A DNA stretch of 64,000 nucleotides. Origin: Rhodothermales bacterium (GTDB taxonomy: Bacteria; Bacteroidota; Rhodothermia; Rhodothermales; Bin80). Of the stretch, positions 33,273 to 33,672 are shown one piece after another. Positions within the stretch are counted from its first letter, which is position 1. Every line of letters starts with the position of its first letter. Position numbers and translations under genes: made by a program. The stretch covers positions 2,354,380 to 2,418,379 of the forward strand of contig OX638318.1 of assembly GCA_951812585.1 (NCBI GenBank), given 5' to 3'. Under the pieces are notes generated by a model that saw nothing but the letters and a program-made list of their open reading frames with translations, made no database searches and was not told the DNA's origin.

Positions 33273-33672
33273 TGATCCCACCAGGGCTCGAACCTGGGAC
33301 CCTCTGATTAACCTACCACACCGGCTTTCACCGGCCGCCTGCGCGGTGTGCGCACACAGCGTTGTGGTCTGGACCATCTCTTCACCCGCGGTGGACAGGG
33401 TGGGCTGCGTATGGCCTCTGAGGGCTCTCCTGCCGACAAGGCGGCGGACGACCTGCACCATTCCGCACGGCTGGCTGTCACGGCCAGCAGCGCGGCCCAG
33501 GCCGTCCTTTCAGGGTTGCCTGCTGATTACCCACATATCCTGCGCATTGTCACGCGTGACAGCGTAGCGCAGGCTTTAGGGCGTCCCAGCATACAGCAGC
33601 CTCCACTTGTGCAGTTTCCTGCACAAGGCTCCATGTCAAAGTCAGATGCTCTACCAACTGAGCTATGGGATC
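33273..33672 (-). tRNA. tRNA-Lys (anticodon UUU), interrupted by a group I intron
   Basis: The two exons are 33639-33672 (34 nt, GATCCCATAGCTC... ending TCTGACTT) and 33273-33311 (39 nt, TTAATCAGAGG... ending TGGGATCA). Joined they give a standard 73-nt tRNA: acceptor GATCCCA/TGGGATC, D stem GCTC/GAGC, anticodon stem TCTGA/TCAGA with loop CTTTTAA, T stem CCAGG/CCTGG with TTCGAGC, discriminator A. The anticodon is UUU (Lys). The intron sits between anticodon positions 34 and 35, the same site used by the tRNA-Leu(UAA) intron of cyanobacteria. Neither exon alone can fold as a tRNA. Confidence 0.93.
33312..33638 (-). ncRNA. Group I self-splicing intron in tRNA-Lys
   Basis: A 327-nt intron. Counting from its 5' end: P1 pairs exon CUU plus intron U with GGAG (7-10), putting a U.G wobble at the splice site. 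P2 is CUUGUGCAG/CUGCACAAG closed by GAAA. P3 pairs GGCUGC (38-43) with GCAGCC (231-236). P7 pairs GGCCAU (223-228) with AUGGUC (262-267). P8 is CACCC/GGGUG. The R-like element UCAGAGGCCAUACG and Q-like AAUCAGCAGGCAA are present. A P9 hairpin CCGGU-GAAA-GCCGG precedes the terminal G. No endonuclease gene is encoded. The compact size and position suggest an IC3-like class (inference). Confidence 0.9.

What the first reader, a model, noticed from the sequence alone, without database searches (positions are those of the whole stretch)
33273..33672. Group I intron inside the anticodon of tRNA-Lys(UUU)
Two half-tRNA sequences 327 nt apart on the minus strand join to a perfect 73-nt tRNA-Lys(UUU). 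The intron lies between positions 34 and 35 and has P1 with a U.G splice site, P2 with a GAAA loop, P3, P7, P8, an R-like core and a terminal G. Bacterial tRNA group I introns I know of are in tRNA-Leu(UAA), tRNA-fMet, tRNA-Ile and tRNA-Arg genes; I do not recall one in tRNA-Lys or in this group of bacteria. The position matches the tRNA-Leu(UAA) site, so it may have jumped between similar UUxA anticodon loops.
Basis: partly seen in the sequence, partly recalled or inferred. Interest (0 to 1): 0.92.

Follow-up and report, generated by a model that had tools for sequence, protein, structure and literature searches.

The report
Self-splicing intron in lysine tRNA gene
The only lysine tRNA gene found in this marine Rhodothermales bacterium is split inside its anticodon by a 327-base RNA of the self-splicing (group I) kind, the same intron sits at the same place in lysine tRNA genes of unrelated bacterial phyla, and the cell can presumably make no lysine-containing protein unless this RNA cuts itself out.

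Summary
Confirmed and extended. On the minus strand, 33639-33672 and 33273-33311 join to a 73-nt tRNA-Lys(UUU); the 327-nt insert 33312-33638 lies between positions 34 and 35. It is a group I intron: Rfam RF00028 E=8.5e-7 (33.3 bits, under the family cut-off of 50), complete P1-P9 core, invariant P1 U.G and terminal G, strong covariation across 18 homologues. No other tRNA-Lys was found in the 3.2-Mb genome, so splicing is probably essential. The host is a Rhodothermales family in which 16 of 16 genomes carry the intron and none an intact copy. The same intron interrupts tRNA-Lys(UUU) in Solirubrobacterales (Actinomycetota) and Chloroflexota; its sister group interrupts tRNA-Arg(UCU) at the same 34/35 site in other Rhodothermales, once with a PD-(D/E)XK endonuclease gene. 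The genome has two more group I introns, in tRNA-fMet and tRNA-Arg(UCU). I found no published full-size group I intron in tRNA-Lys (open-access text only). Self-splicing itself is untested.

The parts
33639..33672 (-). 5' exon of tRNA-Lys(UUU), positions 1-34, ends ...GACUU
33312..33638 (-). group I intron, 327 nt, between tRNA positions 34 and 35, ends in G
33273..33311 (-). 3' exon of tRNA-Lys(UUU), positions 35-73, begins UUAAUC
33629..33632 (-). 3' strand of P1 (GGAG), pairs with exon CUU and intron base 1; U.G at the splice site invariant in 18 of 18
33606..33627 (-). P2 hairpin, 9 pairs, GAAA loop
33596..33601 (-). P3 5' strand GGCUGC
33403..33408 (-). P3 3' strand GCAGCC; P3 shows compensatory changes
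33586..33590 (-). P4 5' strand
33522..33526 (-). P4 3' strand
33422..33520 (-). P6 and its peripheral extension; the extension is absent in the actinobacterial and chloroflexotal homologues; no room for an endonuclease gene
33409..33416 (-). P7 5' strand GGCCA with J7/3 UAC (guanosine-binding helix)
33372..33376 (-). P7 3' strand UGGUC
33383..33402 (-). P8 hairpin
33315..33368 (-). P9 domain, with a GAAA-capped inner hairpin (33321-33334)

Best explanation
It is a group I intron in the only tRNA-Lys gene found, inherited throughout this Rhodothermales family and belonging to an intron lineage that occupies the 34/35 site of tRNA-Lys(UUU) in at least three phyla, with a sister lineage at the same site of tRNA-Arg(UCU). 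Likely working: after transcription the anticodon stem, made of both exons, holds the splice sites together; exon U34 forms the U.G of P1; guanosine bound at P7 attacks after U34; U34 then attacks after the terminal G, joining U34 to U35 and rebuilding the anticodon UUU. Shown here: the anatomy, conservation, covariation, distribution and single gene. Inferred: transcription, catalysis and essentiality. The intron has no endonuclease gene; it probably reached this family by an old DNA-level transfer, perhaps helped by an endonuclease of the kind still present in one Arg relative, and has since been passed on vertically.
For: Rfam match over the complete model. Covariation: 93.2% of cells paired, 23 pairs with double changes, 109 such cells against 44.5 in shuffles (0/500), slid controls 32-45% paired. 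P1 U.G 18/18; terminal G 28/28. 16/16 family genomes have it (other members at 68-73% identity over all or nearly all of it, G005 in two pieces), none an uninterrupted CTTTTAATCAGAG; relatives outside the family have the intact gene. No other tRNA-Lys among 39 tRNAs. Same intron in tRNA-Lys of Actinomycetota and Chloroflexota, no uninterrupted GACTTTTAATC in six of those genomes. Tree: Lys 99/97, Lys+Arg34 100/100. PD-(D/E)XK gene in the Longimonas Arg intron, PF11645 E=4e-42.
Against: The Rfam score is below the curated cut-off. P1 is only 4 pairs and does not fold on its own. No splicing or RNA data exist here. P7, P4 and P6 never vary, so covariation says nothing about them. The tree rests on 189-192 columns with long branches.
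Confidence: 0.93

Rival explanations
1. The split gene is tRNA-Asn(GUU) with an intron at 33/34, as ARAGORN's intron mode reports for many of these loci.
For: ARAGORN -i calls tRNA-Asn(gtt) for the window and for many homologues. In the window both registers leave a U before and a G at the end of the intron.
Against: In 3 of 28 homologues the 33/34 register would end the intron in A or T, whereas 34/35 ends in G in 28 of 28. The P1 U.G needs U34. The exon body closely matches intact tRNA-Lys(UUU) of the order, its 3' half at up to 98% identity. The genome has a separate intact tRNA-Asn.
Confidence: 0.02
2. A dead intron: the ribozyme no longer splices and this locus is a pseudogene, another tRNA-Lys serving the cell.
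For: Sub-threshold Rfam score; no promoter-like match (the scan covers E. coli-type promoters only).
Against: Exons and catalytic core are conserved in every genome of the family, and no other tRNA-Lys was found.
Confidence: 0.04
3. The Lys intron descends from a tRNA-Leu(UAA) intron that jumped (the reader's idea about origin; it does not compete with the best explanation about what the element is).
For: Same 34/35 position; tRNA-Leu(UAA) introns exist in other Rhodothermales.
Against: A Lys+Leu clade is rejected, p-AU 0.0006 and 0.005; Lys joins Arg(UCU)-34/35 instead. The test shares the model's weaknesses with long branches.
Confidence: 0.05

Closest known systems
tRNA-Leu(UAA) group I introns of cyanobacteria, plastids and some proteobacteria
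   Same: Group I intron at the same 34/35 position, U.G at P1, terminal G (position from my own knowledge and)
   Different: Host tRNA is Lys; separate clade from the Leu introns of the same order in the tree; cyanobacterial Leu introns themselves were not in the tree
tRNA-Arg(UCU) 34/35 introns of other Rhodothermales (found here)
   Same: Sister clade, same site, same P7/P3/P8 core, nearly the same anticodon loop
   Different: Host tRNA is Arg; the one of Longimonas carries a PD-(D/E)XK endonuclease gene
IC3-like tRNA introns (Azoarcus tRNA-Ile, Agrobacterium tRNA-Arg, cyanobacterial tRNA-fMet; from my own knowledge)
   Same: tRNA anticodon-loop group I introns; two introns of this look lie in the same genome
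   Different: Different core and sites (33/34 in fMet, 36/37 in Arg here); 100/100 branch apart
Bacterial 23S rRNA group I introns with the same P7/P3/P8 motif (L079, L086-L089, L091, L098, L114)
   Same: Share AGAGGCCATACGC...GAAGAGATGGTCC
   Different: Host is 23S rRNA; not placed in the tree, and the motif was the search criterion
Cyanobacterial tRNA-Lys(CTT) 'group I intron' of PMC5733544
   Same: Claimed intron in a tRNA-Lys gene
   Different: 22-49 nt, too short to hold a group I core

Membership tests
Group I intron (RF00028) | Covariance-model match across the complete family | tested here: inconclusive
   33.3 bits, E=8.5e-7, model 1-253 full length, but below the gathering score 50
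Group I intron (RF00028) | Conserved core helices P3, P4, P6, P7, P8 supported by comparison | tested here: met
   100% of cells paired in these helices; P3 and P8 with compensatory changes, P4, P6 and P7 invariant
Group I intron (RF00028) | U.G wobble at the 5' splice site in P1 | tested here: met
   18 of 18
Group I intron (RF00028) | Intron ends in G | tested here: met
   28 of 28
Group I intron (RF00028) | Guanosine-initiated self-splicing | not testable with these tools
   needs in vitro transcription
tRNA-Lys(UUU) gene | Joined exons fold as tRNA-Lys with UUU anticodon | tested here: met
   ARAGORN on joined exons; homologous to intact tRNA-Lys of the order
tRNA-Leu(UAA) intron lineage | Forms a clade with Leu introns | tested here: not met
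   p-AU 0.0006 and 0.005 against, with Rhodothermales Leu introns
Mobile group I intron | Carries a homing endonuclease gene | tested here: not met
   Lys introns are 236-394 nt; the only endonuclease gene examined is in an Arg relative

The most novel reading that the evidence does not exclude
A non-IC3 group I intron lineage specialised for position 34/35 of tRNAs with a CUU-N-UAA anticodon loop has settled permanently in the sole tRNA-Lys of bacteria from several phyla, so that translation of all lysine codons in whole families depends on one ribozyme, possibly as a control point on translation.
Probability: 0.3. Interest if true: 0.75.

Novelty: new variant of a known kind. Interest (0 to 1): 0.52.

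Why it matters
It adds a new host tRNA (lysine) and at least three phyla to the short list of bacterial tRNA group I introns, shows one intron lineage holding the same anticodon site across phyla and in two different tRNAs, and gives a case in which an essential, apparently single-copy tRNA would depend on a ribozyme. Standard tRNA finders miss or misname the gene, so lysine tRNAs recorded as missing or as tRNA-Asn in such genomes may be mistakes.

Tried and rejected
Plasmid DNA search: no match. Pattern scan of viral contigs: none. ARAGORN intron mode on homologues gave shifted boundaries and wrong names; brute-force joining of candidate splice sites was too permissive, so boundaries were set by comparison. 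My first Pfam query for the Longimonas endonuclease was typed by eye with a wrong start; repeated with the real reading frame. The first tree had a wrongly cut L102 row; repeated. A covariance model was not built: the full core would be too long to calibrate, and a trimmed one would be penalised for long insertions. Subgroup (IA/IB/IC) was not assigned. One original paper on cyanobacterial tRNA introns was not held. The own-genome intron query was set two bases off the true ends; harmless.

Full report
OBSERVATION. On the minus strand the window reads GATCCCATAGCTCAGTTGGTAGAGCATCTGACTT, then 327 nt, then TTAATCAGAGGGTCCCAGGTTCGAGCCCTGGTGGGATCA. Joined, the two exons (33639-33672 and 33273-33311) form a 73-nt cloverleaf with anticodon UUU; ARAGORN names it tRNA-Lys(ttt), and finds nothing in the unspliced stretch in its standard mode. 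Rfam at default threshold reports only the neighbouring tRNA-Leu; at relaxed threshold the group I intron family RF00028 matches end to end with 33.3 bits, E=8.5e-7. The score is below the curators' cut-off of 50, so the match alone would not settle it. The MFE fold of the region is more stable than shuffles (z -3.6).

COMPARATIVE PROOF. The order is Rhodothermales: records with the same intron carry titles such as Rhodothermales bacterium, Rhodothermaceae bacterium bin80 and SB0661_bin_24. All 16 genomes held of the window's own family (6 genera) have the intron, the other members at 68-73% identity (one of them, G005, matches in two pieces), and none has an uninterrupted CTTTTAATCAGAG arm (one stray hit with one mismatch). 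Many genomes of the same order outside this family have an intact tRNA-Lys whose 3' half is up to 98% identical. An alignment of 18 homologues from three phyla with the textbook helices, including the P3/P7 pseudoknot, gives 93.2% paired cells, 23 pairs with changes on both sides and 109 such cells (shuffles: 44.5, 0 of 500 as high; slid controls 32-45% paired). P3 column 50/160 appears as U-A, A-U and G-C; P9, P8, P2 and the anticodon stem covary too. P2 is shifted by one base in the actinobacterial set because of a bulge, so its counts are a lower bound. P4, P6 and P7 never vary. The sequences were trimmed of the distal part of P6 and of mostly gapped columns before alignment.

SPLICE SITES. 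P1 pairs exon CUU plus intron base 1 with GGAG; the U.G is present in 18 of 18 and the intron ends in G in 28 of 28. The one-base-shifted reading (33/34, giving tRNA-Asn GUU), which ARAGORN prefers in intron mode, would end the intron in A or T in three homologues and lose the U.G, and is rejected. P1 is short and does not fold alone; by analogy with the Anabaena pre-tRNA intron (Zaug et al. 1993, listed in the references of PMC3984707) the exon anticodon stem probably holds the sites together.

SINGLE GENE. The genome (one 3.2-Mb contig, 95.7% complete) yields 39 tRNAs; none is tRNA-Lys. tRNA-fMet and tRNA-Arg(UCU) also appear only as interrupted copies. tRNA-Ile(GAU) and tRNA-Ala(UGC) are missing as well, and no 16S gene was found, so a stretch of this assembly may be lacking; a second tRNA-Lys hidden there is unlikely but not excluded.

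RELATIVES. A scan of about 85,000 species genomes for the P7-P3'-P8-P7' motif returned 43 loci. By their flanks: tRNA-Lys(UUU) in the Rhodothermales family; tRNA-Lys(UUU) in Solirubrobacterales/Thermoleophilia (Actinomycetota) and Chloroflexota, all at 34/35, with 236-253-nt introns; tRNA-Arg(UCU) at 34/35 in Salinibacteraceae and other Rhodothermales; 23S rRNA; and one patescibacterial tRNA. Six of the actinobacterial and chloroflexotal genomes hold no uninterrupted GACTTTTAATC. The Longimonas halophila Arg intron carries a 152-aa PD-(D/E)XK endonuclease (PF11645, E=4e-42), the Pfam family that, to my knowledge, includes I-Ssp6803I of the cyanobacterial tRNA-fMet intron; no solved structure matched it by sequence.

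TREE. With 38 introns and 189-192 columns, all Lys introns form one clade (99/97), Lys plus Arg-34/35 another (100/100), away from the Leu, Arg-36/37, fMet and Ile2 introns of the same order; holding Lys and Leu together is rejected (p-AU 0.0006, 0.005). Whether the Rhodothermales Lys introns are one clade within Lys is unresolved (p-AU 0.2). So Lys introns of distant phyla are closer to one another than to the Arg introns of the host's own order: transfer between phyla at the same tRNA site is the simplest reading. The direction is unknown, and the tree has long branches.

MECHANISM. Shown: anatomy, covariation, conservation, distribution, absence of another gene. Inferred from established group I chemistry: guanosine bound at P7 cuts after U34, U34 attacks after the terminal G, restoring UUU. 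Inferred from the single gene: splicing is needed for translation of all lysine codons. No Lys intron seen is long enough to hold an endonuclease gene, so the element looks settled rather than actively mobile.

LITERATURE. A review of bacterial group I introns (PMC3984707) has no occurrence of tRNALys; a review of tRNA gene diversity (PMC4033280) lists such tRNA introns only for cyanobacteria, alpha- and beta-proteobacteria and plastids; tRNAscan-SE 2.0 (PMC8450103) reports fMet and Ile2; PMC4853749 reports Arg-TCT and Leu-TAA in Thiomargarita and a Beggiatoa-like relative. PMC5733544 claims a tRNA-Lys(CTT) 'group I intron' in Gloeocapsa, but of a few tens of nt, too short for the core. Ten full-text searches found nothing closer. 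Only open-access text could be searched, so priority cannot be claimed.

VERDICT. A real group I intron in tRNA-Lys(UUU): a known kind of element in an apparently undescribed host gene and lineage, ordinary in chemistry but notable in site, spread and likely essentiality.

Noticed in passing
L001 (G000:C1:2002216-2002413, minus): Group I intron in the genome's tRNA-fMet gene, between U33 and C34 by the U/terminal-G rule; IC3-like core; Rfam 62.3 bits.
   Followed up: partly
L002 (G000:C1:1498500-1498718, plus): Group I intron in tRNA-Arg(UCU) at 36/37, IC3-like, a different lineage from the 34/35 Arg introns of other Rhodothermales; the same site is occupied in most genomes of the family.
   Followed up: partly
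L068 339-797 (Longimonas halophila): PD-(D/E)XK (PF11645) endonuclease gene inside a tRNA-Arg(UCU) 34/35 intron, a possible vehicle for spread of this intron lineage.
   Followed up: partly
L073 602-727 (G005:C1:50401-50526): Orphan 127-nt copy of the intron's 5' half (P2 to P6), 86% identical to the window's intron but 82% to that genome's own Lys intron, just downstream of a stretch that looks like the end of a TnpB gene (read by eye).
   Followed up: partly
L018, L023-L027, L009, L031, L033-L035: Rhodothermales is rich in group I introns: tRNA-Leu(UAA), probably tRNA-Ile2(CAU), and several in 23S rRNA, one 650 nt long.
   Followed up: partly
whole genome G000: No 16S rRNA, tRNA-Ile(GAU) or tRNA-Ala(UGC) found in the single-contig assembly.
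   Followed up: no
L104: A record titled Bifidobacterium breve carries a Solirubrobacterales-type tRNA-Lys intron; probably a mislabelled or contaminated bin.
   Followed up: no
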